Assembly: GCA_964036195.1 (NCBI GenBank)
Contig: OZ038452.1
Span: 31,321,785-31,385,784 of the forward strand
Length of the DNA stretch: 64,000 nucleotides
Reading direction: 5' to 3'
Source: Sphaerolaimus hirsutus
Lineage: Eukaryota > Nematoda > Chromadorea > Monhysterida > Sphaerolaimidae
The notes below the pieces were generated by a model that saw only the letters and a program-made list of their open reading frames with translations, did not search any database and had not been told where the DNA came from. Below are positions 4,834-44,292 of this stretch, piece by piece. Both the position numbers and the translations under genes were made by a program. Numbering within the stretch: the first letter of the stretch is position 1; each line of letters opens with the position of its first letter.

Positions 4834-7800
4834 ATGGACCGGCCGCTGTTTTTCGTGTTTTTGTCTCTATTTGGTATGTTTTAAATCATTCTGGCACTGT
4901 TCCATAAAAAATTTCAAAACAATTATCAAAACATAGGCTGCGGTTTCGGTGCATACACCAGCATTTGTGACTGGTGTCAATTCCAAATCTTGCAATGTCT
5001 CAAGCAAAGTGCCAAGTGCGATGTAAAAAGTTAGAAAGTTAATTAATATTCAACGTAAACAATGGATAGTTTTCGTTGAACATTAATTAACTTTCTAACT
5101 TTTTACATCGCACTTGGCACTTTACTTGAAGCATTGCAAAATTTGGAATTGTTCCAGGTGTTTCTGCCCGGCCAATTTCACAGCTAGTATTGTTTGCTCC
5201 GTGGAAAACTTAAGCAAACGGAACTTCCGGCCGGTCCGTTTTCTACCGTTTTTTTAAAATATTAAATTTTTTAAAAATTTACCTTTTTCAGGACCGAATT
5301 AAAAGCGAATGGGGTCTTGCAAAGCAGTTACAGTTACCCGCTGAATTTTGTGCACTACAGACACAACTACAGCCGCGGTACGTTTTGCACATTATTGTAG
5401 CGTTATTTCTAAAACTGGGGGGAGAAGGGGAAAGGAGGGGAGAAGAGTGAAAGAGGGAAAGGGAAATGTGAGTAAAATAGCCATTAATGGTTCAATTGTT
5501 TTTCATTAGAGTTTTAAAAACATAAAAAGATTGTACAAAAAACTTTGTAAAACATTCGGCCGTTTCAAGACTTTTCAAGCGATATACCTTGGCCACTTTA
5601 CACTCTACACATCTGGTTCTCATTGGAAGTATGCCAACAATGATTTGGTTTATCTTTTATACAATAATCACATGCTTTCTCATCATTGGCACACTTCCAA
5701 CATAAGACATCGTTGGCACACTTCCAGCGGGAACCACGCGTGCAGGGTGTAAAGTAACCGGAGTATACGCATTTTGAGTATCTATTTCAAAAGAAGCCCT
5801 TCAAGGGATTTTTTCGATGAAATCAGGCATTTATAATTATAATATTTGTGGTGAAAATTAAAAACATTAAATCTTATTTATTTCTCATCACCAATAAACC
5901 TTTCAGCTTTGGCCCCACCACAGTGATAACATGTGAAAGAAAAAACACACAAGCACCCCGGCCACACCTGTCGCTGAAAGCGGAACTGCTGCCGAAATCC
6001 GCGGTTGGCACCACAGAGACGGTGGCCAGCAGCACAATGCCCACTGTCAAAACGGACATGGACTTTTTTAGAACGATGGCTCCGGATACAGTGACGATTC
6101 CAAAGGCGGTATGTTGCAATGGGTTTTTCTGGTTTTTGGTTTAGGATTTGGTGTTTTTAGTTTTAGATAATTTTATTGCAAAACGGAATGTATACTTATC
6201 AACCGACAATTGAAACATAGGTGGATAGATGTGAGAGCATGGAAACAATGCAAGAAAAAACCTACAATTACCTTGTCAGCATTGAAAAAAAAGTACTGAA
6301 TGATATTGCAAAACAAAGCAAACAGATTGCAGCCCAGCACGATGTACAAATGAAAACAATGTCTGATTTGAAAGTCCCTAATATACCTGCAATCGAAAAA
6401 TTGGATGCCTCCAATGTTTGCAACAGATTTAGTACAGAATTAAATGGGCAAAACAGTCATTTCATGGAACAGTTTGGTAGCATTAAAACAAAAATTGATG
6501 AGCATAAGGCTGAATGTTTGAGCAAACCGCCACAGAACCCAAAACAGGATATCTCCAATGTTTGCAGCAGATTTAGCACAGAGTTAAGTGGGCAAAACAG
6601 TCATCTCTCCAAACAGTTTGACAGCATTATGACAAAAATGGATGGGCACAAGACAGAAATTTTGAGCAAAATTCCACAGAGTACAAAACTGGATACCTCC
6701 AGCATTTGGAGCACATTCAGCACAGAACTGAGTGGCCAAAGCAGTGATCTCTCAAAGCAGTTTGACAGCATTATGACAAAAATGGATGGGCACAAGACCG
6801 AAATTTTGAGCAAAATGCCACAGAGCACAAAACCAGATACATCCAACATTTGGAGCAGATTTAGCACAGAACTGAGTGCCCAAAACAGCCATCTCTCAAA
6901 GCAGTTTGACAACATTATGGCAAAAATTGATGGGCACAAGACCGAAATTTTGAGTAAAATGCCACAATGTACAAAACTGGATACCTCCAACATTTGCAGC
7001 AGATTTAACACAGAACTGAGTGGCCAAAACAGCCATCTCTCAAAGCAGTTTGACAACATTATGGCAAAAATTGATGGGCACAAGACCGAAATTTTGAGTA
7101 AAATGCCACAATGCACAAAACTGGATACCTCCAACATTTGCAGCAGATTTAGCACAGAATTGAGCGGCCAAAGCAGTCATCTCTCCAAACAGTTTGACAT
7201 CATTATGACAAAAATGAATGGGCAAAAAGCTGAAATTTTGGACAAAATAGCACTGAAAAATGACAAGCCCAATGTAGATGTGGCTACAATGGTATGTATA
7301 GCAGATGTAATATGTAGTTTTTTGGGGGGTAAAATTTTAGTTATTTAATTTTTATAAAGTTGAGGGGAGATATTCACAAACATTCAAAATATTACCTTCA
7401 ATATATAATAACATTTTCACCTGTAAAAACAATACAACCAGTTCACCACTACCTTTTCAACAATACCATTTAAACATTTGTTTATTTTTTATCTTGTTTG
7501 TCTTTTTCATTCATATTTACTCTTTTTAAAAGCTCAATGGCATGAAATCTGGACTTGAAAGCAGCATAATGGACAAAGTGGAAAAATGCTGTTCTCAAAC
7601 ATTGGAAAAGCTAGTTGATAGCAGTGTCACCAAAACACCAACAGCAGTGACATTGGTATGTATTTATGGATTTATGAAAATCAGGTCTAATCATATTTTC
7701 TAGAACATGCAGAGCAATGACATGCTGTTTGAAAGAGTTGACAATCATGTGAAAAGTTTTTTGGAAAAAATTGAACAAACTTTTAAAGAGCAAATTAAAG

Positions 7801-9752
7801 GAATTACATTGCTGCAATCACAGACCACACAGGCTTGCCAAACCATAGAAACAAAAGCGGTATTTTTTTATCTAAAAAACTCTTTTACACATTTATTTTT
7901 CATGTGAAAATTTACAGATTTCATTGAATATGGCTTTGAGACAAGTAAACCACACATTGAATTGCATGTATAATTCAATGTGCAGTGGCTTTTTTGGACT
8001 GAACAGCACACTGTCAGAAATAGAGGTTTGTACATAATATAACCATATTTTGTATTTAAAAATTAATGCTGCTTTCAAGCTCAGATGACATGCCCAAATG
8101 AAACTCCACCTGCAAACAGCAATATTGAAATGACACATATTTTGACCAAGTTGGATAACATTGAACAAAGTTGGGTGAACAGGTGTCTGTTCCACAAGTG
8201 GAAAACTTAAGAGTAAAGAGCTAACAGTTCAATAAAATGATAAACGATAAGTTAGGAGTAAAGTGAAAAGTTAAGTGTTGAGTAAAACCACATGTCATTT
8301 TGCTCACCTCTTAGCATTTCATTTTACTCTTAACTTATCATTTATCATTTTACTGAACACTTAAGTTTTAACCCTTAACTTTTCCACTTGTGGAGCCGAC
8401 CACAGATACACATCACAAGCCACAACAACATCAAGCAATCCTAGCACTGTTTCCATGCTTTCAAGCACATCACTGGAAAATCTGAAAGAAATAGATGAAA
8501 AAACGGCTGAAAAGTTGCAATCCATTATGGTAGCTGCACAAACTTCCGCAGAAAGCGCATTCAAAACAGTTGTCATGGAGAAATTACATGACATGGAAAA
8601 AATGCTCCACGTAACACTGAATCAAAACTACCAGGTCACATCAATATTTATCAACAGCTCTTATATATACAAACCAATGCCTCTATTTTTCAGACCTATG
8701 TGATAATGCACAGCATCAGCATTTTCCTGGGGTGCATTTCTTTCACAGCCATAATTGCCTTGGTTTTTGGATATCGGATTTATGTGAAACAAAACAGAGG
8801 GATGGCGGCAGATGTCGAAAGGGCCCAAATGTAATATGCTTACATATTTAAACGTCTATCATTTTAATAAAAAATAACAAAAACGATTATAGGCAAGTAA
8901 CTGCACTTTCCGCGCTGGCCGAACTGTCAACCGAGCGCTTCGCTACATCCCACAGAGTGCCGACAGATTTTGCTGTTTGTACTTTTGAGTATTTTCTGGG
9001 AAAAAGTGTTTTTCAATTACTAGCTTTAAAGGTGAAATAAAAAGTAAAAACCAGTGTTTTCAATTAAAAATTTTTCAATGTGAAAACATTTCTTTATGTA
9101 GCCTTCAAGTGAACCTTCAATTTTCATGTGAAACAAACATTTCCATTGTACAGGCACCGATACCGCCGCACTCGTACGTGGAAACAACCCACCACGAAAC
9201 GGCTGCGATAACAAGCTTGAATAGAACCTATGATGAAGTGGAAAGTGAAGAAAACAATGCAAACGGTTAGAAAAGATGGTGATATATACTCGACGAAAGT
9301 TCTACTTAACGTGGAAATCTACCATAGCCCATCTGAATAGTCGAAAAGAAAGTAGGCAACTTTTCATTTTTCAAGTCACCCTATACGGATCTTTTCAAAG
9401 TGGAAATCTTGATTGAGGGGGGAGGGGGGGTTAAACGATGTCAAAAGGTTTTTCAAAAGGGGGGAAACAAAACCGTTTTGTCAGAACACTTTTCAATCCC
9501 AGCACAAAATCTGCATTCGGAGAGTATTTCGAAGAGGCTTTATAAGTCCATAACATTCATTTTAAGGAGGATATTTTGACAAATAAAGTATTTTTACATA
9601 TGCCCGTTAGGATTCTACCTACGATTCAAAAAAACCTAATTTTATTAAAACATAATAACTTTGGCTCAATTCCAGATATGGACGACTTTCCTACGCCGCC
9701 GCCACAGTTGAAAGTCACGCTCTGCCGCTTGGGAAAGCCGGCTACCCATTAA
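4834..9752 (+). CDS. Secreted/single-pass membrane protein with Cys-rich head and six 48-residue repeats
   Basis: Complete gene model of 15 exons: 4834-4873, 4937-4973, 5158-5233, 5292-5377, 5907-6108, 6221-7291, 7533-7655, 7704-7859, 7918-8025, 8085-8182, 8406-8634, 8694-8830, 8893-8974, 9154-9265, 9676-9752. All junctions agree in phase, giving 877 residues. The start Met opens a hydrophobic signal peptide (MDRPLFFVFLSLFG). A Cys cluster follows (CDWCFCPANF...VCS), faintly like an LRR N-terminal cap. Exon 6221-7291 carries six repeats of about 48 residues (DTSNICSRFSTELSGQNSHL type) with coiled-coil character. Exon 8694-8830 has a membrane helix (ISIFLGCISFTAIIALVFGY) and then a basic stop-transfer segment. 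The tail has two tyrosine sites (SYVETT, TYDEVESEE) that could bind SH2/PTB proteins. Two introns are MITEs. The ligand is unknown; an adhesion or receptor role is inference. Confidence 0.8.
4974..5157. mobile_element. Introner: near-perfect palindromic MITE forming intron 2 of the 4834-9752 gene
   Basis: The intron begins GTGTCAATTCC and ends GGAATTGTTCCAG. Its halves are long inverted repeats; the core from 5020 to 5120 is an almost perfect hairpin around AATTAATATTC. The ends pair as (G)TCAATTCCAAATCTTGC against AACAATTCCAAATTTTGC. Flanks CTGGTGT and CAGGTGT resemble a decayed duplication. Removing it joins codon TG|G in phase and keeps the Cys-rich frame open. Confidence 0.8.
8183..8405. 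mobile_element. Introner: MITE with CAGTTCCACAAGTGG-type ends forming an intron
   Basis: TIRs GTCTGTTCCACAAGTGG and (reverse complement of the right end) GTCGGCTCCACAAGTGG. The interior is an imperfect palindrome of AGTTAAGAGTAAA-like motifs. Splicing at CAG|GTGTCTG and CCACAG|ATAC joins AG|A in phase 2. Relatives outside genes lie at 27154-27358 and 51912-52236, with a one-ended fragment at about 20630. Confidence 0.85.
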
Positions 9753-11507: not shown

Positions 11508-11837
11508 ATGAAGTCAAAGTTGCAAATGAAAAAACAGACCCTTTCACTTCATGAACAGCATCTAAAAACAGCTGCCTACAGCCTGGTGCCAGTCCCACAC
11601 TCTGTAAAATGTAAAATAAAGAGTCAAAATTCATGTAAAATGTCAATTTTCATGGTAATGGTCAAGTAAATTGTCGACTATCACGACAATTGACATTTTA
11701 CATGACTTTTGACACTTTAATTTACACCTTATAGCGTGTGGGACCACCCCCAGACACCCCATTCAATCAATCATTCTTCTGGGGCGGGGAAAACTCCAGC
11801 TGAAACACAGTGGCGGCGGCATGACCGTGTAGATTGA
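11508..11837 (+). CDS. Small two-exon reading frame interrupted by an introner
   Basis: ATG at 11508 (an AG lies three bases upstream at 11505, so this could instead be an internal exon). The frame runs to 11585, skips a 168-bp MITE, and resumes in phase 0 at 11754 to a TGA at 11835-11837, giving 53 residues. The product begins MKSKLQMKKQTLSLHEQ and has no known domain. It could be a small protein, the end of a gene with missed upstream exons, or chance. Its main support is that an introner sits in it with its splice signals in the usual register. Confidence 0.4.
11586..11753. mobile_element. Introner: 168-bp MITE, GCCAGTCCCACACTCTG-type ends
   Basis: Left end GTGCCAGTCCCACACTCTG, right end GTGTGGGACCACCCCCAG. 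The interior has inverted TGTAAAATGTCAATTTTCATG motifs typical of this family. The left flank ends CTG|GT and the right flank gives CCCCAG|AC, the same register as the family members inside proven frames. Confidence 0.65.
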
Positions 11838-19216: not shown

Positions 19217-20088
19217 GACCCCTTATAAGAGTCTACAGCCTTATATGAGTGTCGACGGTATAAACTATGTTCTCACGTAACTCAATCATTGTTATGCTTT
19301 GCCCGGGTCATAAACCGCAGCTTTTGTCATTGACGTTCTCTTTACACTCAATTGGGGGGGGGGCTTTATCAATTCATAGTGCCCATTTTGAGGTGGGTAT
19401 TTCGAGGAAAGACGGTATACTCGGCGTGCATGATACTGTGCCCTCGCACTGATTTATGTCTCGTGTTGGAAGCGTGCCAATGATTATTAAATCATGTGAT
19501 TTCCGTAAAAAGATGAAAAAATTCATCGATGTTTATATGTTAATGAATAACATTATAACAACAATCAGTTTTGTCATCTTTTTATGAAACTCGCACGCGT
19601 TAACCATCGTTGGCACACTTCCAGCGGGAACCACGCGTGCAAGGTGAAAAGTAACCGGAGTTTAGCTGTTGCTTGTCAGTCATGTTTCCTTTGCCTAGAT
19701 TGCCTAGATGTTTCCTCTGCCGTGTTAGAAAAGGTCCGTTTACTTTTCATGCATATAGTCCACTGCCTGCTCACATCACAATGAAATTTACATAACACGA
19801 TCAGGATAACAAACGTTTGTTTCATATCACTCTCATCACTCTCAAAATGACTGAATTTGGTGCATTATTTTTCACTTGATTTCATTTGTCAAATTCTGTA
19901 AAATTCCTTCTGAAGCTTGTTGTCCGGGGCTAAATATTCCCACACCCTGTAAAATGTCATGTTTAGCGTAAAATTTCCGAAAAAATTGTCAAATGTCATG
20001 TAAAATGTTAAATAGGTCCTGTTACACACTTGTCATTTTACACGTAAATTTTTCGAGCCCAATAAAAAAAAATTCTTCTAATTTTCAG

Positions 20089-20294: not shown

Positions 20295-20354
20295 AACGAA
20301 AAGTTAATTTTTAATTCGTTATTTGAGTTTTGATGGGGAATTGTTTTAGTGAAA

Positions 20355-20999: not shown

Positions 21000-23900
21000 A
21001 TGGCAAGTCCAAACCTCAAAAACACATATGTACTTGTGAATTTCATGATCATATGCTGCAGCTGTGCCAAATTCGCTTTGAAAACGCCAAAATTGTCAGA
21101 AATCAGTCCTACAAACTGTAAACATGACACGTTATTACTTGAAAATTCGGCAAAAAATTTCGCTGGCATTTCCCCCGTCGCGTTTGCCGAGGGTATTTTC
21201 GACCAGGTGCCAATCCCAGACCCTGTAAAATGTCAAATGTCATGCAATTGAGTTGTCAGTAGTGATGGAATGGCGCCATGCGCTGGCGCTATTTGAGGGC
21301 GCCGGCGCCATGGCGCCATTGGCGCTTGGCGCCCTTTCTCTGTGGCGCCATTGGCGCTTGGCGCCCACTTTCTGGAAGGCGCCATGGCGCCCTTGGTGCT
21401 TGGCGCCCTTTTCCCGTGGCGCCCTTGGCGCCTGGCGCCCAGTTTCCGAATGGCGCCATGGCGCCTTTTTTTTCTGGCGCTTTTCCATCACTAGTTGTCA
21501 GGCAAACTCGGTTGCCATTTTGCCGGGCATTTTCCATGACTTTAGACACTTTGCATGACATTTGACTTTTTACAGGGTTTTGGAGTGCCACCAGTACGCG
21601 GTGGTTTTCCCGGACAACGGTAGTTTTTATCTGCCCGAATCGTTCCACTTTGTCCCGGGTGAAGTCGTTGGCTGCGCGCCAAAATCGTTGGTTTATTTTG
21701 TTGGATTTGAGCGTCTAATGGTTAGGCAGTTCCAATGAACGATCGTCGTGAATCGCAACAATTTGTATACATGATATTTTTTGGTATCCTTTTTTTCTAT
21801 TTCTGAAGCGCTTCTCCATTTTGTGCTCTAGTCTAATGTTAAGTTAAATAATGAAAATATTCTTTTTACGAAAGAACATTTTCAATGACAGACGAGGCTT
21901 TACAGGGTTCGGGACGGCTAGGGCCGATTCCGCATCAAAGCCCATTCCGCATGTAGACCCATTATAGACACATTATGCCTGCAGGGGTAAGAAAGGGGGG
22001 TGGGTAACACCACCCCAAACCACCCAGCTATCTATCTATCCCTGGCGCAATTTTTTGGCTACATTCTCCTGAACACCCCCCCCCACCAGCAAATTGCCTA
22101 GCTATCTGGAGCGCTTTTGAGCAATTTTACCCTAATTTTCACTAAAATTCCCTAATTTTCATACTTATTATAGATTTTCACCTTCAAAATAACTATGTGT
22201 TTTATTACCTATTTTCAACATGCCAGGTATAATTAAATGTGCTCCGGGTCAACATGCGGGATGGGTTTACATGCGGAATAGTGCACTGCCGTTCGGGACT
22301 GCCACCATGTGTAGTGGTTCTACGCCCACTAGTATATCACTGTATTTTTGAAAAGTTATGTCAGCTTTGAACACATTTTAGTTGACCGAAACAAATCATG
22401 ATTACAATCAGAAGTAACTCATTCGAGTATGCTCAAGTGAGTTCTAAGCTGATTTGTGAGTACCGTATTTCCTCGAAATGAACTTCAGGCGTATTTCTGG
22501 GAAATACGGTATTCAAATTTCAGTTGAAAACGTGTGTGCAGTACGGTAAACTTTCGAATTTAAAGTCCTTTCACAGCAGACCTACAGTGAATTCTACTTA
22601 TTGATAAAAGTTACAGTAAATTCTGAACCAAACTACCAACTTTTTCAACTGGGTGAATTCTGCCTTCACAGAAATTTTTATTTGACTTTTTTCAATCACT
22701 GCTGCGTTGTTTAAATTTTCCCATCCGGGCATAAATTTTTTTACAGGGTCGTAAAGAATATCGATCAGCCGGACTGTCTATTCAGTTCATTTCACGATCC
22801 AAACATTTGGCAGGTTTCCAGCGATGAAAATATGGTCAGATTTTTGGACATGGATAAAGTTCCTTCGAATATGGATTACGTCAATCTTGATTCTAATAAC
22901 TGTATCAGACTTGAGATTAACAGGTGCCACTACCAGACCCTGTAAAAAGCCATGTAAAATGTAAAATGTAATGCAAAGTGTCAAAAGTCATGGAAAATGC
23001 CCTGCAAAATGGCAACTCAGTTGCCATTTTGCAGGGCATTTTCCATGACTTTTGACACTTTGCATGACATTTGAAATTTTGCAGGGCTTTTTACAGGGTC
23101 TGAGAGTGCCCCCAGGCCCATACACTTGAAAAGAGTTTCATTTGACTCCATGGAAATGCTTAGTAACACCCTGAAAGATATGATTTGGTCAGTCGAAGGT
23201 TAGCAGCGGTCATTTCTGTAAGTGGACGAGTGAAAACAGTGCGAAGTAATAGTGTTTATCATAATTTTTAAATTGATTTTCTGGGTTATTATTTTAAAAA
23301 TTGTCTGATTTCTGGAAAGTTAACCGCCAATATCAATCATCTACATGACGTATTTCATCGAAATACCCCTGGCTGGGTGGTTTACTATTCGAGGGGGTTG
23401 TTATTCCGCCAGAGAATTTCGTGAAGTATCGTAGTAAACAATTTATTGGCTTTTATTATACATACCTAAAACAAGTGATAAATGTTTCCGAACAGGACAT
23501 ATTTGTATGTACTTATGTAGATAGCTACTTACCGTATTTCCTCGAAATACCCCCCGTCGCGAAACACCCCCTCAAAATGGACACTATGAAATAATTACCC
23601 ACCCCCTCGAAATACCCCCCCCCAAATTGAGTGTACAGGGAACGTACATGACAAAACTGCAGTTTGTGATTCGGGCAATGCAAAGCACACGTTAAAAACA
23701 ATGAGTTGTTACGTTAGAACAGTGTCACACACTTGTATAATAAGTCAATAGACTCATATACCGTATTTCCTCGAAATACCCCCCGGGGTGATTGTTTCAT
23801 AGTGGTCCCGAGAGGGGGGGGGGTTAAACGAGGGGAGTATTTCGAGGGGGGGGGGGTCATTATTTCGCCAGAAATTTTTTCAAATCCTAGTACAAAATCG

Positions 23901-32591: not shown

Positions 32592-32652
32592 ATTTGACCA
32601 GAATTGTACATCTTATAAAATACAAGTAAACAAAGTCAATCCATCGACCATG

Positions 32653-35600
32653 TCACATGACCACACAGCAACTTTTGTCTGGAGGTTGCAATAATTTCGC
32701 TCGGGCATTCAGTAGACCATCGGAGCCGGCCCTGGGGGCACTCCCAGACCCTGTAAAATGTCAAATGTCACGCAAAGTGTCAAAACTCATGGAAAATGCC
32801 CTGCAAAATGTCAACCGAGTTGCCATTTTGCAGGGCATTTTGCATCAGTTTTGACACTGCATGACATTTGACATTTTACAGGGCTTTTTACAGGGTCTGG
32901 GAGTGGCACCTGTATAAACGCTGTGCCAGTGTGTTCCCATTTTGATTTGCTGTCCCATTGTGCACGTAATTTTCAGGATAATTTTGGATAGAACATTTGT
33001 CTGAGTTTCCCAGGTCCTGAAATTGGGTAATTCTTGTACTGCTTCGATTATTTTAATTTACGTATTTATGTAAGACTATTTAGTGTAAAAGGCAGTGCAG
33101 TGTTCGTGGCAGAGTTGTTAAAAGTATTGAACGTTTTCCAAAGTATATACGTAAACATAAAGTATTTATTTTTTACTCACCCCCTCAGTACAGAAAACGT
33201 AAAGTAACATTTTTTACTTTTACTCATGAGTAAACGTACTTTTCGCCCCATAAAACATAAATGTGAGTACTTTTGAGAAATATCGCCAAAATTTTTCGGC
33301 TATATATTTGCTTTCATACCCATTTTCGACTAGTATCCCCTATTTTTAGCACACATTCTCCCTTTTTCCTTCTTACCTTAAAAAATCTATAAAAACACTA
33401 TCTGAAAATACGTTTTCTGTACTCGAGTACTTTGTAAAGGTATATGTAAAAGTGAGTACAGGAACTTTTTTAGGAGGAAACGTAAATGTATTTACTCTGT
33501 ACATGAGTATACGTATTTATCGAGTAAAAATAAAGACGTTTTAACAACTATGGTTCGTGGTTGCGCATTTGAGAATCGACTACTAAAGGAAACACTTGTA
33601 ATTGGAAATTTGGAAGTTGAAGACTATTTAAAGAAATCATTGGCACTAGCATTGAAAAAATGGCCAATTTTGAGAAAATATAATTAAATATTATATCAGA
33701 AAATCTCTCAAGGAAAAAATATAATTAAATCTCTTGGGTCATTTTAGAAAATATAATTAAATCTCTGAGAAAATCTCTTTCAGTTCAAAAAAAAATCTCA
33801 GAAAATCTCTCAACTTGAATTATGTTTTATTGGTGTTTCAAGTTAAAGCTAATTTTTTAAACTTTAGTTGTTTAAGCTTTAGCTTTGTTTAAGTTTTTCA
33901 TCAATAATTTTATCAACACATTGTCCACTGACAGCACGCTTTGTACTACTGTTAAGGGCATCGCCATCGTCGCAGCTTGTCAGTCCCTAATATAGACTAG
34001 AGCCCAGCCACCACAGTGGTCCAGCGGTTAGGGCGCTCGTGTTCTATACGAGAGGCACAGGTTCGATTCCCGGTTCGATTCGATCTAAATAAATAATAAA
34101 CGTATTTAGGTACATGTTTCCTCATAAAACAATACATGAATTTCAGGTGTCATGATTCCAACAGAATTTTTCAGATGACTTTTTTCACCAAATTTTGTAA
34201 TTATAGCAAAGCATGCAGTCAACATAGTTCTTAAAACATATTTACATATACTCAAACATGCACATACTTGAGTACTGAGTAAATACATTTACATTTCCTT
34301 TGAAAAAGGTACCAGTACTCACCTTTATGTATACTTTTTGAAAGTATATAAGTACAGAAAATGTATTTCAGATAAGTTTTTATATAAGCTTTTTCAAGCC
34401 ATAGAATGGGAAAGGGAAAGAACCCCCCCCCCAAAAAAAAAAATAGGGACAAACTACCAAAAGGGTGCATAAAATATTTCATCACCCTGCAAATATTCAC
34501 CATTCACCAAATTTTCACTTTCCATCAGTTAAAATTATTGCACTTTGTTGGCTAAATATTCAATCATTGCTAAAAATCAATACATCACACATGTTGTATA
34601 GAGAGATTTTCCCAAGAGATTTTCTCAATCAGAGAAAATATAATTGAGGCGTCCAATTCTAAAAGTTGACAAGTCCAAAATATGAAAATTTCGAGTTAGG
34701 CCCGGAAACATCATCTGGGGCTACTTCTGCACATTTTTCATCATTTTCCATAAATTTTTTGACCTCACATGCCGATATGGCAAAGTGCCAAATTTGACAT
34801 TTTTGAGGAAAAATGCAAAAAGTTTGGGCAAGAAGTCGACAAGTCCATCCTCCGCTTCCTTTTTTTATGGGAAAAAAACGCAAGAAATGTGATAAGTCCA
34901 CTATGGAAACCGATTTCTAAAAGGCGACTAGTCCATACTTTTCCCATAAGGCAGCCTCGGCTTCCCCGGGAACAAAAATGTTCTCGCGTGCAAGAAGGCG
35001 ACAAGTCCATTTCCCTCCCCGAAACAGTTTTGCTCTGACCGAATGGAATTTTATGGACACCCCATTTTTCACATATACGTTGAGATAAGGGGCTGAAAAT
35101 TTGACACTTTATTGTCAACATATGGAACTTTATGAAAACCATGAGAGAGCCAAATTGGACATGCACCACAGGCCTGGAATTGGATCGGAAACTTAAAATG
35201 CGATTTACTCAAAATCACATTTTTTGTGGACTTGTCGACTTTTAGAATTAGACGCCTGAATTAAATCTCTCTGGAACATCATGGAAAAAATATAAATCTC
35301 AGAAAATCTTATATTTTCTGAGATTTTTTTAGATTTTTTAAATATAAATCTCCCAGAGATTTTTTCAATGCTAATTGGCACACAAACTGCGCATGCACAG
35401 TAAAAATACCAAGCGACTGCAGTACACAAATGTATTCAAATATGTACCTCCATTGGATTAGTAACGATGTGCATGGGCAATCCATTCAGTCCCAGTTCGT
35501 CACAGGATTCACTGTCATCGATGCCGAACGTTGTTGGACCATATAAAGTNNNNNNNNNNNNNNNNNNNNNNNNNNNNNNNNNNNNNNNNNNNNNNNNNNN

Positions 35601-38600
35601 NNNNNNNNNNNNNNNNNNNNNNNNNNNNNNNNNNNNNNNNNNNNNNNNNNNNNNNNNNNNNNNNNNNNNNNNNNNNNNNNNNNNNNNNNNNNNNNNNNNN
35701 NNNNNNNNNNNNNNNNNNNNNNNNNNNNNNNNNNNNNNNNNNNNNNNNNTAAAGTGTCCAGTGGTACCTTGGACTGGCTGAAATTACATTATAAATTTGT
35801 AATTATTCTGTTATTTGGTAAATCGGTTTGGTGAGTCAATTTGAGTCAATGTGTTTCCTTGGACACTTGATTGTAGTCTATCAAAGAACTACCCTCCTAG
35901 CAGAAATACTGTATTTATCTTATGTTAGTGATGTGAAATTGACAAAAATCTAGACAAAAGCTTTGGTAAAAAATCCCCCTGCAACTTAAATTGAACCAAC
36001 TTGAACCAACTCAATGGTCTACATAAAATTACCACAAAATGAACTTATTCAAACCCAATGTACCCAATCTACCATTGCACAGAGACACAAAAAAAAAATT
36101 CGCAAAAGAATTCACCCGACAGTGACGGCGCCGGAATGGTGCAGCAGGGTGTGCACGCTGTCCTTGGCGAAGTGCTGCTGCAGACTGGCCTGGCGGCAGT
36201 CCCAGACCCTGTAAAAGCCCTGTCAAATGTCTAATGTCATGCAAAGGTCAAAAGTCATGGAAAATGCCCTGCAAAATGGCAACCGAGTTGCCATTTTGCA
36301 GGGCATTTTCCATGACTTTAGACACTTGCATGACATTTGCCATTTTACAGGGCATTTTACAGGGTCTGTGACTGGCACCAGCTGCGCCTTTGGCAGCAGT
36401 CTGTGCGTTTCAGTAGCATCCTCATCCGGGGCAAAGATGGCAGCTGTGCTCTCCTCATTCATTTGCTCCTGCCATTCGTACTCCGATTGCTGCGAGGTGA
36501 GTTCACTTGATCTGCCTTCTTGTGTCTTTTCGATGCTCGATACTATGTCAAATATGAAAGTTCATGGTGTAAAATATTAGGTTGGAAAGAAAGTTCTGTC
36601 AGTTTCTAGAGACGAAGCCGAAGCCGGACCAGCGAATCGGACTGACAGAACCAGGGGTCTCGAATGGGGGGTGGTTGGGGGGGGGGGTTACCCCCCCCCA
36701 AACCGCCCAGCTATCTATCTATCCCGGAGGCAAAATTTTGGGCTACTACCCCCTAAACCCCCCCCCAAATCGCCCAGCTATCTACCTATCTGGAGCGATT
36801 TTTCAGAAACTATACCCCAATTTTCGCTCAAAATCGCTATTTTTCATACCTATATATAGATTTTCACCTCCAAAATCACTAGTTCATGCATCTAACTGCC
36901 TATTTTCAGCTATTTTAAGTACTATATGCTCTTGTATACCCATTTTGAGCTATTTTACACCTACTTTTAGCGATTTTTCTCCCTTTTCTTCCTTCTATGC
37001 CCTGAAAAATCCTATATATCGAACCACCACAACCCCCCCCCCAAACACCCCCCAACCCCCCCAGAAAATTTTTCAGCTATCTATCCCTCCGGAGGAGCGA
37101 TTTGTCATCTATCCAACCACTCGGAGGGTCAAAATTCAAGATACCCCTGGACAGAACTATCTCTCCAACCTAAAAGTAGTGATGTCAAAAGCTCCAAAAG
37201 CGCCATGGCGCTTTTCTGACCCCCAGCGCTAATGGCGTCAAAGCAAAATGGCGCCAAGCGCCAGAATCGTTATGACGTATGACGCTCCTTGTTTTAGCGC
37301 TGGCGCAAGCGCCAGGCATTTTGTTCCTGGCGCCGGCCGGTCAAAAATAGCACCAAGCGCCAAAAGCGACATGGCGCTTTTCATCGTCATGGCGCCAAGC
37401 GCCAATGGCGTCACAGCAAAATAGCACCAAGCGCCAAAAGCGTCAGGGTGCTTTCTGCTTTGCTGCTAGCGCCAGGCGCCAGCGCCATGGCGCTTTTACG
37501 TCATTCGAGTGCCTGCACCAAAGAAAAATTCCCCCTGGGCTTTTAGCGATTGGTGATGATTTGTAATGATGGCAAACAAAAGTTTAAAAATTTGAAAATA
37601 TTTCCGAGTTTTCGTTTTTTGAAATTTTTTAAATTTTTATTTCCCCCTGGAAAAACACTTAAAACATCTTCCATGATACAAAACTGTTGGATTGTTGCTG
37701 GTGTACAGCAAGTATGAAAACGAAAAACACCCGAGTGCCTCGCTTTCACTTTGCTGCTTGTGTCATTTTCTACCTGTATCATTTCTAAGCCAATGACTTG
37801 AAATGCTAAGCATCTAAAAAGTCTATGAAAATACTTTCCATGATTAAACATGACTTTAAAAATAACAATGACTTACCGAAGCATTGATTATGTCATTATT
37901 ATCGAATGGGTTTGGTCTGCCAGCATTTGTGTCAGAAGGTAGGGCTGAATTTCCTGAATTATTCTGCCCTGTCTGCGGGTGTGGAGGGCCACTGCTGCCC
38001 ACTGCCTGTGCAATCATTTCACAACAATTTAAAAAAACCCTGTAAAATGTCACTGCTACCGTATTTCTTCTAATAGAACGGCATATTTACCTCCAATAAA
38101 ATGGAGGTAAGAAGTTGACAAAAAAATAGAGCGGCGCTCTTCTACTTATTAGAAAAAATACGGTAATCAATTTTCGACCAGTTTAATATAAAAACTTTAT
38201 GTCTAAAATTTGAGCTTTATTGGATAGATTCCATTCATTTCATTGGATTTGATTCGCACTTGTCCCGCTTTTATTCAGATTTTTTGTAGAGAAATTCAAC
38301 TAAGTATGTGGCAACTCTGGATCAGTGCCAAGTTTCCATGACAAATTTGATTCAGCATGCATAAAGGATCACGTGCACACTTCACTGGACCAGTTCTTTC
38401 CATAAAATTGCAAAGCAATTGCGAGCTAACTTCAAAACAGAGCAAAACACACCCAAAATTCATCGAGCATTTCCCACTGGGCCGCGGACAAGTCTGAAGG
38501 CACTCCCAGACCCTGTAAAAAGCCCTGTAAAATGTCACATGTCATGCAAAGTGTCAAAGGTCATGGAAAATGCCCTGCAAAATGGCAAACATGTTTGCAA

Positions 38601-41600
38601 TTTTTGGATATTGCATGACCACACGTGTGATAATTATGTAAAAAGTGTACGTGTAAAAGTGTAAATTTTTGTACGTATGTTTACCATTTTGCAAGGCATT
38701 TCCCACGACTTTAGACACTTAACATGACATGAGACATCTGACAGGGCTTTTTACAGGGCCCGTGAGTGGCACCTGGACACGAGGCAGCCAGCGAGTGCGC
38801 GTACGCGTGCAGATCGCCGCCGCTGCCCGACGAGCCATTCTCTGTGGCTGCAGCCGCTCCCAGTGCTAACGGGTGTGACGGCTGTAAATGGTGGAAATTA
38901 AATTACATTTTCGTCTTGCCCCAGAAAATCTGAGCCCGTACCAGCAAGGGTCAAAATCTAGGATAACCCTGCGGCAAGGAATTAACGAGGAGAAACAAAA
39001 GTTGGAAAAGCTTTCAAATTTTTGAATTTCCTAGAGTGTTTTATTTTTATTTTTACCTAGAACGAACACCTTTTTCACCCCTGCCTATATTTCTATAAAA
39101 TTCTCCATTCAGGGCAATTTCATGTGGTAAAATATAAGCAAAAGGAAATTCTGATGGCACTTTCCCATTACCTGCAGTCGCAAAACAATGATGAAAAATA
39201 CTCCCAAGGGCGGGGGGGGGCTTATTTCACATAACAGCCAAAAACCATTGATCACACCTCATCCCTGCCATTTGCTGACATATCCGGCACAGACGTCCTC
39301 CTGGGCAGTTGGCCCAACTGTCCATTTGGCAGTGTGCCAGCTTGCGCACCGCCATGGGGGCAGAGTTCCTCCGCAGAATGCGACAGACTGGACATCATCG
39401 CGTGGTGATTCAGTGCCAGTGCGCTGTTCGGATCTGTGGGCGCCCTGTCTGATGCAGCCTGCGAGGATTTGTAGATTGAATCCTCAATTTAGGAAAGTTA
39501 CACATCCACTCCGCAGTGAATGATGGGTTCTGTGGACTATTGAGCTTGATTATGGTGTCAACTTTCCATTTTCTGTTTTCCACAGGACAAAGTTCTACCT
39601 TTCCACTTTCGGGTTTCTGGTAGCTGAGAACTTTTTACCTTTCCATTTTCATTTTTCTATAGAAATTCTTTGATACACTAGGCTGGATGTATTTACTTGA
39701 GTGCATAGTTCATGGAGCAATGTAAAGCATCTGGAGACACAGTGAAGTGTATTCATGTGCATGTTCTGTGTCTGGATGATGTCACTTCATGACACTTCAC
39801 CATACAAAACACACTCATTTTTGATGAAATTGGCAAGGTGCCAGCTATAGAGGCAAACAATTCCGGAAAATTAAAAAAATAAAATTTAAACAAAGACAAA
39901 GTTCTAGAAAAATAGTTGCACTCAACCTTTTCTTGTGGAGTTGGGGCCTATGCTTATGGCAAAAATTAAATCTGCCAGGTTGTTATTTTTCAATGAAAAC
40001 AAACAGGGCTCCAATAAGTCAGAAACACAGTCAGCCAAATATTTGAACACTGTTTGCATCGTTATAGCTGGTACGTAATTTTTGACTCACCCATCCATCA
40101 GGAGTTTCAGAATTTGGCTGTGAGCCACTGTCACATTGTGGGGTTGCACTTGTACCGTTGTTAAACAATCTTCGTGTTTTCTTTTTGCGCTTCTTTTTCA
40201 GTACAATTGCTGGGATTGGCATGCCCAGGCCAGCTGAAAAAAATAATTAAAAATTACTTAATAGTAATAGTTTGACATTTTTAAACTAATGTAATCAAAC
40301 AGCAATCATCAGTGATTTCAGTAGAATAAAATTGGATACGTTTTTATATTATAAATTGTAATGAGCATTCTAAAAATGGATTCCGTGGAAACACAGAATA
40401 CCATATATCCTTAGATAAAACCCCTTCAAAAACTTCCCCACATGAATAACACACCCCCTGAGATAGGTGGAAAAGTTGTTAGGTCAATAAAAAAACAATC
40501 AATGAAGTCAGACACACCAAATAAAGCTTCACCTGGGCTGCAAATAGTGCAGTGTGTGAAACAAAAAAATTCAGAAGAACATTAGCCTACAGCAGCGAAA
40601 ACAGGTACATAATGTAATTCTAAGAAATAACTTCTTTTTGAAAATTCCCAGCTCGAAAACTCTGACAAAAAATAATTCCCCTGGGGTCTTATACAAGGAA
40701 ATTGACTTGTCAGCTGAGATCATTTAAAATTTCAGTATGATTAACCCACCATTGATTGAGGTGACATTGGCTGAATACCCAGGGGGTAACCCATTGGCAC
40801 CAAAAGGACCACCAATTCTCTGGTTGTATAGTGAGAAAGGTCTCCCTTTGCCAACTCCAAGCATTTGCATGTTAGCTTTGTTTATGGTAGATGGCAGCAA
40901 ATTTGGATTATAAATTGGTGCACCAGCTGCTGGGTTCATGGCGGGCCTGAAATGTAAACACCGTATTTCTTCTAATAGAATGGCATACCTCCAAAAGAAA
41001 GGCACCTCCAATAGAACGGCACCTCCAATAGAACGGCACAACCAATAGAACATAGCAGGTAAAAATGTAGATTAAAAAATAGAACCACACTCTTCTATTA
41101 GATCAAATGCAAAGTCAAATGTCAAAAGTAAAGTAAAGTGTCAAATGTAAAGTCAAATGCAAAGTCAAATGCAAAGTCAAATGTCAAATGTAATATCAAG
41201 TGTCAAATGTAAAGTAACGTGTCAATTGTGAGATTTGGATACACAATTGACACTTTACTTTACATTTGACTTTACATTTGACACTTGACTTTACATTTGA
41301 CATTAGACTTTGCATTAGACTTTGCATTTGACACTTTACTTTACACTTTACAGGGCTTAGGATTGCCTGCCACCATATGCAATACACACCTGACATTGGG
41401 TCCCATCTGTGCTGGTGCTGGTGTACCCATTTGAAACCTCTGCTGCCCCATGCCCACAGCTCTCACGTAGGGCACCCCAGTGGGCCCAGCCCCAGCAGTG
41501 ACGTAGGCAGCCGGTGCAAATGCACTTGGTGGCAGCTGGTAGCCCGATCCAGGTCCATTTTGAGTCATTGCAAGTCCCCTTGGCGGGCCCAGACCCATCG

Positions 41601-44292
41601 GTGGTGGTGGGTGTGCAGTCATCATACTTTGCCCAGCCTGGAATTGTCTCACCCTGGCTGCCAGCATTTGCTGCTGCAGCAAGTGCATTTGAGCCTGGGG
41701 GGTTTTGTTTTCTTGGATTAATGCCAACAGAATGATAAATTATGGAATGGAATTTCAAACTTGATAATGAGTGCAAAAATGGGCTTGGGAACTGTGTGGA
41801 AACAAGCTGGTTTCATGTGTAGCAGCCATAAAGCGGGAATTAGAGCTCAGCGTCGATTCGACGTGAAATGATGACGTGAAATGACGTCGTGAAATTAATT
41901 ACCCAAGTGTGGATCATGCTACGGGTCTACAATTTTCCAAGGATAATATATGAATCAATACCTTAATCGTGTCCAATACTGAGTGTTATCAGCCACAACT
42001 AGAGCGAATTGAAAAATTCAATTTTTATCATTTCACGTCATCATCATTTCACGTCACAGTGTCAGGGAACAACTTGACATTTCACGTCAGACTGCTGCTT
42101 GCAATAGTCTGACGTGAAATGTCAAGTTGTTCCCTGACACTGTGACGTGAAATGATGATGATGTGAAATGATAAAAATTGAATTTTTCAATTCGCTCTAG
42201 TTGTGGCTGATAACACTCAGTATTGGACACGATTAAGGTATTGATTCATATATTATCCTTAGAAAATTGTAGACCCGTAGCATGATCCACACTCGTGTAA
42301 TTAATTTCACGACGTCATTTCACGTCATCATTTCACGTCGAATCGACGCTGAGCTCTAATTCCGGCTTAAAATGGTTGCGACAACATGTTACACATGTTG
42401 CACATGCTTCACAAAATCTTAGTATTTTTCAAATGCCTCACAGATAATCAAAACTTATTAAAGTGTCTTCACAAAACATTTAAGCATGTTTTTCATGGTT
42501 TGTGAATTGAAGTGAAGTGTCTGCATGGCACAAAAAATGCCTTCAAGCCAAAACTCTGCCTGCTTGAATGAAGACTCTACACATCACTTCACCGTGCATC
42601 ACACACCTATTTTTGCCATGAACGCTCACCTGAAATAATGCCGCACTTCCATTCACAGGTTGCATTGGCCCAATTGGCATGCCCTGCTTTGGGTTAACAT
42701 TGTATCCGGGTGCACCAGCATTGTTGTTAACCCCAGGTTGGACTAAACAGCCAGAAACGGGCAACATTGGATTATTCACTACGAAATTGTTTTGCACCTG
42801 GTTGGTTGATTGCATGGCTGGCTGATGCTGTTGATTTGGGTCAGCTGGTGGAGTTTCCACAGGTTTTGGAGGAATTTTACCAGTGGGCACAAATTCTGGT
42901 GCCTGCAGCCAGTCTGGGTGGATGATATGTTGCGAATTCAGGCCAGATTTCATGTTTGCACAGCAAAGTTGTTACTACCTATATATTTTACGTTTTTGAA
43001 AAAAACGTAAGAATTTTGTTGGCTGCAGGTGCCCAGTTTAAACGTGTGCACGTGTGTACGATCAGAATTTTTTTATTTTCCATAGTACCCGGGTATTTTG
43101 GCCAGGAAAACCTTAAAAAAACGTAATAGTAGTTTTGGAAAACATAAATGTAAATGTAAGTATAAATACCCAAAGGACCGGGTATTCCGGGTAAACGTAA
43201 ATACCTTTTTTGCAACACTGATATTTTGTCACGTTCAAAAAGATCAAAACCTTCAATTAGAGAAACATTTTTTTGGAGGTATGCCTACGATTTGAGATAA
43301 CAGGGTATTTACTTGTAACCTTAGAAATGCTATGTTTGGCAGTGACAGCACAACACTCATTTTTTTGCTGTGAAAGCACATCACACATGTATTCCCCAAT
43401 TGTTCAACAACACCAAATCATGCACGAACCATTTGCCTTGCTGCCGGACGCGGAGCTGTGCACCGACGGAGTGTCGCCCGTCTGACTCCTGCTACCAGTC
43501 CCGGACCCTGTAAAATGCCCTGTCAAATGTCAAATGTCAAATGTCATGCAAAGTGTCAAAAGTCATGCAAAATGCCCTGTAAAGTGTCAAATGTCATGCA
43601 AAGTGTCAAAAGTCATGGAAAATGCCCTGTAAAGTGTCAAATGTCATGCAAAGTGACAAAAGTCATGGAAAATGCCCTGCAATGTGTCAAATGTCATGCA
43701 AAGTGTCAAAAGTCATGGAAAATGCCCTGTAAAGTTTCAAATGTCATGCAAAGTGTCAAAAGTCATGGAAAATGCCCTGTAAAGTGTCAAATGTCATGCA
43801 AAGTGTCAAAAGTCATGGAAAATGCCCTGTAAAGTGTCAAATGTCATGCAAAGTGTCAAAACTCATGGAAAATGCCCTGTAAAGTGTCAAATGTCATGCA
43901 AAGTGTCAAAAGTCATGGAAAATGCCCTGTAAAGTGTCAAATGTCATGCAAAGTGTCAAAAGTCATGGAAAATGCCCTGTAAAGTGTCAAATGTTAGGCA
44001 AAGTGTCAAAAGTCATGGTAAATGGCCTGCAAAATGGCAAATGTCATGCAAAGTGTCTTAAGTCAATCAAGTAAAATGCCCTGCAAAGTGGCAACTGAGT
44101 TTGAGTTTTACAGGGCATTTTGCATGACTTTTGACACTTTGCATGACATTTGACATTTGACAGGGCATTTTACAGAGTCTGGGACTGACTCCTGTGGTAG
44201 TAACTGGGCGGCGGCCGATCTTCGATATCAAAATAGATTTTCATCAAGTGCGCATCCGCATCTTCTTGGCTTTCGAATTTTCTTGTGGCCAT
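32653..44292 (-). CDS. Large low-complexity protein with PAM2-like motif, basic patch and C-terminal CaaX box
   Basis: Exons in transcript order: 44292-44192, 43488-43430, 42953-42630, 41694-41390, 40946-40750, 40233-40091, 39458-39258, 38881-38773, 38493-38453, 38005-37877, 36489-36379, 36189-36116, 35777-35448 (holding a gap), 33016-32910, 32731-32653; about 700 residues. It starts MATRKFESQEDADAHLMK. Exon 3 has LQAPEFVPTG, like the PAM2 peptide that binds the MLLE domain of poly(A)-binding protein. Exon 6 has KKKRKKKTRR. The chain ends SCCVVM; CVVM is a farnesylation-type CaaX box, so membrane attachment is expected. The middle is rich in P, Q, N, G and S. Phases agree everywhere except exon 2 to 3, where no AG acceptor fits. 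Four introns are introners. I do not recognise the family; a link to mRNA regulation is inference. Confidence 0.75.
32732..32909. mobile_element. Introner forming the last intron of the CaaX gene
   Basis: On the minus strand it begins GTGCCACTCCCAGACCCTG and ends GGGAGTGCCCCCAG. Splicing joins AG|G (Arg) in phase 2 and leads straight to the CaaX terminus; without removal the frame is broken. The TIRs are 17 bp and nearly perfect. Confidence 0.92.
34010..34085 (+). repeat. tRNA-Arg(TCT)-like sequence, probably a SINE head
   Basis: Contains a good A box (TGGTCCAGCGGTTAGG), an anticodon arm CTCGT-GTTCTAT-ACGAG with loop anticodon TCT, and a perfect B box (GGTTCGATTCC). The D stem pairs, but the acceptor stem does not and the T stem is mismatched. 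It is followed by an AATAAATAATAA tail. This fits a tRNA-derived SINE or pseudogene rather than a working tRNA. Confidence 0.6.
34645..35265. mobile_element. GAGGCGTCCAATTCTAAAAG element, copy 1
   Basis: TIR GAGGCGTCCAATTCTAAAAG on both sides, followed by GTTGACAAGTCC or its complement. The motif GACAAGTCC recurs through the element in both orientations. Copy 2 is at 55829-57372; a one-ended remnant is at about 14902. Confidence 0.75.
35550..35749. other. Assembly gap (200 N) inside an exon
   Basis: 200 N flanked on both sides by TAAAGT. If the two flanks are merged on this 6-bp overlap, the exon 35448-35777 becomes 124 nt, in phase with both neighbours and free of stops. The gap may therefore be a false join of overlapping contigs, or hide a repeat. 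Confidence 0.85.
36190..36378. mobile_element. Introner in the CaaX gene
   Basis: On the minus strand it begins GTGCCAGTCACAGACCCTG and ends GGGACTGCCGCCAG. Splicing CTG|GCC is in phase 0 (PKAQL|ASLQQHF). The arms are near-perfect inverted repeats around AACCGAGTTGCC. Confidence 0.92.
36652..37149. mobile_element. CTATCTATCTATCC element with perfect 8-bp duplication
   Basis: Ends CAGGGGTCTCG and (right) AAGATACCCCTG, flanked by GACAGAAC on both sides (36644-36651, 37150-37157). It holds repeated CAGCTATCTATC blocks and G/C runs, lies in an intron of the CaaX gene, and is followed by a GCGCC-type element (about 37184-37505). Confidence 0.85.
38057..38165. mobile_element. TACCGTATTTCTTCTAATAG MITE in an intron
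   Basis: Both ends are present (TACCGTATTTCTTCTAATAG; inverted TTAGAAAAAATACGGTA). It lies in the intron 38006-38452 of the CaaX gene. Confidence 0.75.
38494..38772. mobile_element. Introner in the CaaX gene, with extra central sequence
   Basis: On the minus strand it begins GTGCCACTCACGGGCCCTG and ends GGGAGTGCCTTCAG. Splicing joins G|AC (Asp) in phase 1 (ASCP|DLSAAQWEML). About 90 bp of unrelated sequence interrupts the palindrome centre. Confidence 0.9.
40961..41356. mobile_element. TACCGTATTTCTTCTAATAG piece and a GTCAAATGCAAA inverted repeat
   Basis: 40961-41100 is a degraded member of the CTTCTAATAG family. 41100-41356 is an inverted repeat of GTCAAATGCAAAGTCAAATG units resembling the interior of the introner family but lacking its ends. 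Both lie in one intron of the CaaX gene. Confidence 0.55.
41831..42369. mobile_element. Giant near-perfect palindrome (arms about 260 bp)
   Basis: Starts AAGCGGGAATTAGAGCTCAG and ends with its complement (CTGAGCTCTAATTCCGGCTT). The arms match almost base for base around a centre near 42098-42110 (CAGACTGCTGCTTGCAATAG). It contains many GACGTGAAATGA motifs. A truncated copy lies at 61373-61648. It sits in the intron 41695-42629. Confidence 0.9.
43489..44191. mobile_element. Introner in the first coding exon of the CaaX gene, internally expanded, GA-AG ends
   Basis: On the minus strand the right-hand family end reads GTCAGTCCCAGACTCTG and the other end GGGACTGGTAGCAG. A 10-nt direct repeat CAGGAGTCAG spans both insertion edges. 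Exact removal restores YYHR|SQTGDTPSV; the only AG-ending intron that does so starts with GA. The interior holds about ten tandem 50-bp units ending AAAATGCCCTGT. Confidence 0.85.

What the first reader, a model, noticed from the sequence alone, without database searches (positions are those of the whole stretch)
4974..44191. A burst of transposon-made introns (introners) in one 40-kb neighbourhood
Nine introns in four genes (4974-5157, 8183-8405, 11586-11753, 21207-21594, 22924-23115, 32732-32909, 36190-36378, 38494-38772, 43489-44191) coincide end to end with MITEs. Removing each leaves the frame open with matching phase. Two lie in an amnionless-like gene whose flanking residues align with the family across the junction. 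MITEs that insert as ready-made introns are known as introners from some algae and from the larvacean Fritillaria. I infer this genome has an active or recently active introner system. The family ends (GCCACTCCCAGACCCTG) do not match any introner I know.
Basis: partly seen in the sequence, partly recalled or inferred. Interest (0 to 1): 0.93.

Follow-up and report, generated by a model that had tools for sequence, protein, structure and literature searches.

The report
Transposon-made introns in an animal genome
Short hairpin-shaped mobile DNA pieces, present in thousands of copies in this animal genome, appear to turn into ready-made introns when they land in genes, because the three letters they duplicate on landing complete the splicing signals.

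Summary
All nine sequences exist at the stated coordinates and are hairpins ending in CAG; eight begin GTG and one (43489-44191) GAG. Seven belong to one very large MITE family: its terminal 20-mer occurs 21,150 times at 2 or fewer mismatches in the 348-Mb genome (reversed control 1). 8183-8405 belongs to a second large family; 4974-5157 looks unique. The elements duplicate a 3-bp target, CWG (same triplet on both sides in 47 of 59 copies sampled without regard to it), as NuwaI/PIF-Harbinger-type transposons do. One terminus carries GT, and the target copy CAG supplies the 3' splice site, so CAG|GT...CAG| is an exact intron. Joining the flanks of CAG/GT/CAG copies preserves an open frame in the sense direction (p=0.0001, n=30) and not antisense (p=0.61); CTG/CTG copies show no clear signal. 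PRPF8, a lipase and a GPCR align with no gap at the junction, and an amnionless match spans 22924-23115. Splicing is untested (no RNA data). Coding evidence is weak for introns 1, 3 and 6, a bestrophin copy does not fit, no autonomous partner was found, and orientation is not biased genome-wide. I judge this a genuine introner system: a new member of a known kind, very abundant, with an unusually clear mechanism.

The parts
4974..5157 (+). claimed intron 1: hairpin, ctg|GTGTCAATTCC...TTGTTCCAG|; unique in the genome by one 25-mer
   Evidence: ends; only itself and its other arm; open frame phase 2 (29 aa up, 33 aa down); no protein support
8183..8405 (+). claimed intron 2: member of a second high-copy MITE family, cag|GTGTCTGTTCCACAAGTGG...CCACAG|
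   Evidence: (2,836 ends at 3 or fewer mismatches, control 0); CWG in 104 of 135 exact ends; frame open 38 aa up, 99 aa down
11586..11753 (+). claimed intron 3: diverged member of the main family, ctg|GTGCCAGTCCCACAC...CCCCCAG|
   Evidence: left end 3 mismatches, right end not found at 6 or fewer; phase 0; coding not shown
21207..21594 (+). introner in the amnionless-like gene, cag|GTGCCAATCCCAGACCCTG...GAGTGCCACCAG|, with a GGCGCC-rich insert inside
   Evidence: Pfam match to PF14828 starts just after the junction
22924..23115 (+). introner in the amnionless-like gene, cag|GTGCCACTACCAGACCCTG...GAGTGCCCCCAG|
   Evidence: one Pfam PF14828 stretch (residues 12-68, junction after residue 57) spans it, E 3.1e-5, 23.4 bits against a cut-off of 30.4 (protein 2; alignment not shown)
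32732..32909 (-). claimed intron 6: main-family element, cag|GTGCCACTCCCAGACCCTG...GAGTGCCCCCAG|
   Evidence: both ends exact in the 20-mer, 13 more than one frame open, the phase 2 one ends ...KSCCVVM stop; coding not shown
36190..36378 (-). claimed intron 7: main-family element, ctg|GTGCCAGTCACAG...GACTGCCGCCAG|
   Evidence: phase 0, 61 aa up and 25 aa down open
38494..38772 (-). claimed intron 8: main-family element, cag|GTGCCACTCACGG...GAGTGCCTTCAG|
   Evidence: phase 1 frame open 43 aa up, 20 aa down
43489..44191 (-). claimed intron 9: main-family element enlarged by a 50-bp tandem repeat (11.3 copies); donor reads GA; CAGGAGTCAG at both ends
21204..21206 (+). left copy of the 3-bp target CWG (here CAG), exon side
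   Evidence: genome sample
21592..21594 (+). right copy of the 3-bp target (CAG) = proposed 3' splice site
   Evidence: genome sample
21000..21206 (+). amnionless-like exon 1 (start codon inferred)
   Evidence: translation; signal-peptide-like start by inspection
22749..22923 (+). amnionless-like exon before the second introner (start inferred from TTTTTTTACAG|)
26198..26641 (+). open frame holding a later amnionless-like exon
   Evidence: protein 4 (E 0.0086, weak)
45463..45604 (-). main-family copy with both ends (donor position reads GA), upstream of the minus-strand gene; not shown to be an intron
   Evidence: ends inferred from the terminal repeats
41107..41370 (-). main-family copy with one recognisable end, lying about 22 bp inside a larger intron; not an exact intron
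   Evidence: approximate limits
19927..19971 (+). fragment with one terminal repeat, outside any recognised exon

Best explanation
These are introners: non-autonomous, palindromic DNA transposons (MITEs) that insert by cut-and-paste into the trinucleotide CWG and duplicate it. Shown: one terminus begins GT (GTGCCACTCCCAGACCCTG), the other begins GG (GGGGCACTCCCAGACCCTG read inward), and a copy of CWG flanks each end. When a copy lands on a CAG of the sense strand with its GT end first, the gene reads ...CAG|GT[element]CAG|..., that is, exon CAG, donor GT from the terminal repeat, acceptor CAG from the duplicated target. Removing it restores the exon exactly, frame included. Landing on CTG gives no AG, so those copies are not exact introns unless the right-hand copy changes to CAG. 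Inferred: the spliceosome removes them; the terminal-repeat stem hides the decoy AGs just upstream and leaves the last AG free; the transposase is of the NuwaI/PIF-Harbinger (PHIS) kind.
For: Family size: 1,732 exact 17-mers, reversed control 0; 21,150 20-mers at 2 or fewer mismatches, control 1. TSD: same CWG on both sides in 47 of 59 copies; 53 of 64 after removing shared flanks and adding (the copies were picked from a list that already had CWG on the left). 1,241 of 1,732 17-mers are preceded by CWGGN, under 1% expected by base count. GT/GG asymmetry, first 100 places listed each, tallied by eye: left end GT in 91, right end GG in 92. Frame test, with no coding information used to choose ends: CAG/GT/CAG sense p=0.0001 (22 up, 4 down, n=30; mean open length 30.0 codons of 35 at the exact join against 25.0-27.1 out of frame), antisense p=0.61; CTG/GT/CAG sense 6 of 6, p=0.016; CTG/GT/CTG p=0.14 sense, 0.72 antisense. 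Homology with no gap at the junction: PRPF8 (E about 1e-30 per copy), acid lipase (5e-19; a one-residue gap lies two residues before it), rhodopsin-type GPCR (3e-9); amnionless match spans a junction (3e-5). Folding: terminal AG unpaired in 39 of 39, 99 of 104 other AGs in the last 45 nt paired. CWG TSDs define NuwaI (PMC4482050, passages, section 7).
Against: No transcript data, so splicing is inferred. No bias of CAG over CTG genome-wide: 50 to 41 among GT ends and 52 to 48 at right ends, so many copies are not under selection for splicing. Raw open-frame length did not separate sense from antisense in the first 13 CAG/GT/CAG copies (9 against 9 at 20 or more codons); only the frame-shift comparison does. 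The bestrophin copy (L088) lies in a conserved coding frame but with CTG/CTG, so it lacks an AG at the exact end. L068 and L095, which do align, have CTG on the left and CAG on the right, an imperfect TSD. 31 of 90 and 6 of 19 sampled left ends had no right end found. The one PIF/Harbinger transposase copy read has a different right terminus. The nine window introns alone do not pass the frame test (p=0.19).
Confidence: 0.9

Rival explanations
1. The MITEs inserted into pre-existing introns next to the splice sites and the rest of the old intron was lost, so they mark introns but did not make them.
For: One copy (about 41107-41370) does lie inside a larger ordinary intron some 22 bp from its donor, so the element also enters existing introns.
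Against: The 3-bp target duplication coincides with the splice boundaries (47 of 59 copies; 53 of 64), and flanking codons join directly in conserved proteins. An old intron would leave residual intron sequence outside the TSDs.
Confidence: 0.05
2. The insertions are simply disruptive exon insertions or lie in pseudogenes; GT and AG at the ends are chance features of the terminal repeats and nothing is spliced precisely.
For: Some coding insertions (bestrophin L088 by homology; L108, L053 and L025 by reading frame only) have CTG at the acceptor position; overall orientation is unbiased; the PRPF8 stretch is present twice, so one copy could be dead (both carry the element).
Against: Frame preservation is seen for copies with AG at the right end and, for CAG/GT/CAG, in the sense strand only; two elements sit in one amnionless-like gene.
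Confidence: 0.05
3. The introns spread as RNA by reverse splicing, as proposed for fungal introner-like elements, not as DNA transposons.
For: They are similar introns at many positions; background only (PMC9860276, parts 1 and 2 of 7).
Against: Terminal inverted repeats, a 3-bp target duplication, and many copies in the unspliceable CTG orientation (17 CTG/GT/CTG against 30 CAG/GT/CAG), which RNA copies of introns would not produce.
Confidence: 0.02

Closest known systems
Introners (Gozashti et al. 2022, PMC9860276; parts 1 and 2 of 7 and two passages read)
   Same: Families of introns alike to their splice boundaries, with TIRs and TSDs; the element carries one splice site and takes the other from the TSD (their Chrysochromulina case carries the 5' and co-opts the 3' site; their Symbiodinium case has 4-bp TSDs and TIRs).
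   Different: 3-bp CWG TSD that is itself the exon-end and acceptor consensus; near-complete palindromes; over 20,000 terminal repeats in one animal genome (how many are introns is not known), where that paper reports 5 to more than 2,000 introners per family and genome.
NuwaI group of the PHIS (PIF/Harbinger) superfamily (PMC4482050; passages and section 7 read)
   Same: CWG target duplication; found in that survey only in animals; TIRs usually starting GGG, as the right end here does (GGGG).
   Different: The left end here starts GTG, which makes a splice donor; no NuwaI transposase with these ends was found; no intron formation is described in the parts read.
Larvacean Fritillaria introners and tunicate non-canonical introns (PMC13326754; search listing and passages read; Fritillaria introners recalled)
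   Same: Animal; [quoted passage not shown]
   Different: Here most element left ends read GT; taxon not identified.

Membership tests
Introner | introns of similar sequence with similarity reaching both splice boundaries | tested here: met
   63 of 73 elements (64 genome, 9 window) have an end-to-end relative within the set; 5 of the 9 window elements (4974, 8183, 21207, 38494, 43489) do not
Introner | insertion lies exactly between exon halves, frame restored on removal | tested here: met
   (CAG/GT/CAG sense p=0.0001, antisense p=0.61); homology; not shown for every copy
Introner | precise splicing of the insert | not testable with these tools
   no transcript data held
Introner | intron absent at the same place in relatives (gain) | not testable with these tools
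   the genome has no relatives in the set; the one search for an empty paralogous site gave six matches at three places, none spanning the junction
DNA-transposon (cut-and-paste) MITE | terminal inverted repeats and fixed-length target duplication | tested here: met
NuwaI (PHIS) | 3-bp CWG target duplication | tested here: met
   47 of 59 copies, 53 of 64; second family: CWG at the expected spacing in 104 of 135 exact ends
NuwaI (PHIS) | TIR beginning GGG | tested here: inconclusive
   right end GGGG in 92 of the first 100 listed of 869; left end GTG in 91 of the first 100 listed of 1,241
NuwaI (PHIS) | DDE transposase plus Myb/SANT protein in an autonomous copy with the same ends | tested here: inconclusive
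   PF13359 has 163 matches, but the one copy read has another right end and its left end was not reached; other matches not read

The most novel reading that the evidence does not exclude
CWG-targeting (NuwaI-like) transposons are pre-adapted intron makers: their duplicated target CAG is both the exon-end and the acceptor consensus, so a change of the GGG terminus to GTG turns the whole family into splice-ready cargo. In this animal two such families have supplied thousands of introns, including one in the spliceosome core gene PRPF8, and the CAG or CTG choice at landing decides whether the insertion is silent or damaging, with damaged ones sometimes rescued by a CTG-to-CAG change at the right end only.
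Probability: 0.55. Interest if true: 0.85.

Novelty: new member of a known kind. Interest (0 to 1): 0.76.

Why it matters
How new spliceosomal introns arise is a long-standing question, and animals offer few cases. Here the insertion chemistry explains the splice sites letter by letter, and the two landing orientations provide a built-in natural control (spliceable CAG against unspliceable CTG). That makes the cost of an intron gain, the rescue of a bad one, and the role of intron hairpins directly measurable with RNA-seq and a relative's genome.

Tried and rejected
Pfam on ten short single junction peptides gave nothing useful: two chance-level hits, and no hit even for peptides that look like SMYD, a 7-TM receptor or a KCC transporter. 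A solved-structure search found nothing for full amnionless, the SMYD-like piece or a C2-like piece; the 7-TM piece of L031 reached an adhesion GPCR only at E 0.38. The KCC piece matched residues 52-120 in the best chain and 67-120 in several others, with the junction after residue 65, so it supports the exon more than the junction. A first comparison of raw open-frame length, sense against antisense, showed no difference. An amino-acid composition score leaned the right way for CAG/GT/CAG (19 of 27 higher in sense) but not for CCG/GT/CAG (0 of 2), is crude, and was replaced by the frame test. The idea that the PIF/Harbinger transposase family mobilises the introners was dropped for the one copy read: its right end differs, its left end was not reached, and no close match to the introner terminus was seen. 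Identifying the organism failed; Membranipora membranacea was considered and set aside because its chromosome sizes differ (passages). Selection seen as TSD mismatch (CTG/CAG 6 against CAG/CTG 1 with GT, flank-distinct, p=0.125; the window adds 3 and 0) is suggestive only. Some right ends accepted at 7 mismatches (L069, L070, L083, L092, and L043 and L044 by their sequence) are doubtful. L010 is one element counted in both orientations. For the 611-bp loci a right end could be found only within about 460 bp. The C1 cluster at 16.48-16.53 Mb was left out except L098.

Full report
What was claimed and what is there. The nine intervals were cut out and their ends read. All nine end in CAG in the gene direction; eight begin GTG and one (43489-44191) begins GAG. 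Each folds with 19-27 pairs between its ends. A scan of the window with the 20-base terminal repeat at 6 or fewer mismatches found 12 places on the plus strand and 18 on the minus strand, against about 2.0 per strand in three mononucleotide shuffles. Both ends of six of the nine are among them, plus one end of 11586-11753; 4974-5157 and 8183-8405 are not.

Genome-wide size. The window lies in a 348-Mb genome of 762 contigs held here. The 20-mer CACTCCCAGACCCTGTAAAA at 2 or fewer mismatches occurs 10,607 and 10,543 times, control 1. Since a complete element has two ends, this means on the order of ten thousand elements (inference; fragments are not excluded, and counts are said to be lower bounds). 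The terminus of 8183-8405 occurs 1,411 and 1,425 times at 3 or fewer mismatches, control 0, so it belongs to a second large family. A 25-mer from 4974-5157 finds, at 3 or fewer mismatches, only itself and its own other arm.

Anatomy. I sampled left-end hits on contig C1 in listing order, leaving out most of a cluster at 16.48-16.53 Mb. Of 90 scored, 59 had a right end (ending CAG or CTG by the search) within 800 bp, or about 460 bp for the short loci, at 7 or fewer mismatches. Of 19 scored (20 fetched, from a list that required CWG on the left), 13 had one. In the 59 the same CWG stands on both sides in 47. Of the 72, 64 have distinct flanks: left flank, first two bases and right end read CAG/GT/CAG 30, CTG/GT/CTG 17, CTG/GT/CAG 6, CAG/GT/CTG 1, other combinations 10 (L010 counted in both orientations); the same CWG stands on both sides in 53. 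Genome-wide, 1,241 of 1,732 17-mers are preceded by CWGGN. So the elements duplicate a 3-bp CWG target. Oriented to CAG, the 53 target sites also prefer C just before it (0.70).

Asymmetric ends. Among the first 100 places listed for each end, tallied by eye, the left end (GNGCCACTCCC, 1,241 in all) has T at the second position in 91 and the right end (GNGGCACTCCC, 869 in all) has G in 92. One end thus carries a splice donor and the other does not. The second family behaves alike: 104 of 135 exact termini have CWG eight bases before the core and 66 of the 104 start GT.

How it makes an intron. In a sense-strand CAG with the GT end first, the gene reads CAG|GT...CAG|. The terminal repeat gives the donor, the duplicated target gives the acceptor, and removal restores the exon. 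A sense CTG gives GT...CTG and no AG. The model predicts that copies with AG at the right end should sit at frame-preserving exon positions in the sense direction. That was tested by joining the flanks and comparing the junction-spanning open frame for in-frame offsets (0, 3, 6) with out-of-frame offsets (1, 2, 4, 5). CAG/GT/CAG, 30 copies: sense p=0.0001 (22 up, 4 down; mean 30.0, 29.9 and 29.8 codons of 35 in frame against 25.0-27.1 out of frame), antisense p=0.61. CTG/GT/CAG, 6 copies: sense 6 of 6, p=0.016; antisense p=0.06. CTG/GT/CTG, 17 copies: sense p=0.14, antisense p=0.72. The nine window introns alone give p=0.19. An earlier comparison of raw open-frame length, sense against antisense, showed no difference.

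Homology across junctions. PRPF8 (L103, CAG/GT/CAG): TEDP|DLPAFYYDPLINP aligns with no gap at the junction, E about 1e-30 for single-copy chains (5e-62 for a chain holding the stretch twice). Acid or gastric lipase (L068): RP|VIFLQHGLL, E 5e-19, with a one-residue gap two residues before the junction. Rhodopsin-type GPCR first helix (L095): IVFL|AIFCLSVVGNS, E 3e-9. Amnionless intron 22924-23115: one Pfam PF14828 stretch spans it, E 3.1e-5 but below the curated cut-off in bits, and its gaps were not displayed. For 21207-21594 the Pfam match starts a few residues downstream of the junction; my view that it also fits the upstream residues rests on recall of the human protein. A KCC-type transporter exon begins right after a junction on the opposite strand, where that copy also reads GT...CAG (L046; ends).

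Results that do not fit neatly. Bestrophin (L088) aligns without a gap across a CTG/GT/CTG insertion, where exact GT-AG removal is impossible. The terminal repeat holds an AG nine bases upstream whose use would add three codons, but not every CTG/CTG copy has it. CAG and CTG are near balance genome-wide: 50 to 41 with GT at left ends, 52 to 48 at right ends, first 100 listed each. Many copies are therefore not kept because they splice. In the window, copies at about 45463-45604 and 41107-41370 and a fragment at 19927 are not exact introns. Coding status of introns 1, 3 and 6 is not shown; the phase-2 reading of intron 6 ends in a CaaX-like CVVM (motif recalled), which is only suggestive.

Hairpin and decoys. 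In single-sequence folds of 39 elements (30 sampled, 9 window) the last AG is unpaired in 39 and 99 of 104 other AGs in the last 45 nt are paired. This is nearly forced by the palindrome. It suggests, but does not show, that the stem hides decoy acceptors.

What kind of transposon. CWG duplication defines the NuwaI group of PIF/Harbinger-like (PHIS) elements, found in that survey only in animals, with TIRs usually starting GGG (PMC4482050; passages, section 7). The right end here starts GGGG; the left start GTG would be a derived form. The genome holds a PIF/Harbinger transposase family (163 PF13359 matches). The single copy I could read, 4.1 kb in three pieces, has a different right end, so it is not shown to be the partner.

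Comparison with print. The 2022 survey (PMC9860276; parts 1 and 2 of 7 and two passages read) describes introners with TIRs and TSDs, including ones that carry one splice site and take the other from the TSD. This system is of that kind. Searches for 'introner' with two other terms (20 papers), 'introner' from 2023 (24 papers), 'intron gain' with 'MITE' and 'Fritillaria' (1 paper), two combinations on new introns and inverted repeats or Harbinger (0 and 1 listed), and 'Harbinger' with 'CWG' (2 papers) listed no title or abstract opening that describes introners with CWG duplications. I did not read most of those papers, and the library lacks most subscription papers, including, by recall, a 2025 follow-up survey of introners.

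Verdict. An introner system, strongly supported by sequence alone, in an unidentified animal; splicing and absence in relatives remain to be shown.

Noticed in passing
window 41831-42368: Near-perfect 538-bp palindrome (97% complementary arms, 2-nt spacer) inside an intron of the minus-strand gene; an arm copy lies at 61366-61579.
   Followed up: no
window 18350-18700, 23814-24190, 49692-49835, 56268-57172: Another repeat family with GGGGGGTATTTCGAGG / CCTCGAAATACCCCCC stretches, copies up to 98% alike, in both orientations.
   Followed up: no
window 16793-17399 and 52526-53041: Two blocks (parts up to 95% alike) made of GGGATC-type repeats.
   Followed up: no
window 6221-7345: Open frame with tandem 144-bp (48-aa) repeats, upstream of the intron at 8183-8405; Pfam hits look spurious.
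   Followed up: partly
window 43528-44094: 50-bp tandem array (11.3 copies) inside the element at 43489-44191, made of the element's own kind of motif, so elements may grow internally.
   Followed up: partly
window 32640-32732, minus strand: Possible last exon ending KSCCVVM, a CaaX-like prenylation motif (recalled).
   Followed up: no
L123, L124, L125 (G000 C1:20512501-20516600): PIF/Harbinger DDE transposase gene whose matched stretch seems interrupted by short introns; 131 of the listed PF13359 matches reach E 2e-10, most of much the same length and score, which suggests a young transposon family; its right terminus is not the introner's.
   Followed up: partly
L103 and L104 (G000 C1:22.18 and 22.20 Mb): A stretch of PRPF8 is present twice about 19 kb apart, both copies with an introner at the same place.
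   Followed up: no
G000: Hits reach far into about eleven large contigs (C1-C4, C6, C7, C9, C13-C16), hinting at eleven chromosomes; the species was not identified.
   Followed up: partly
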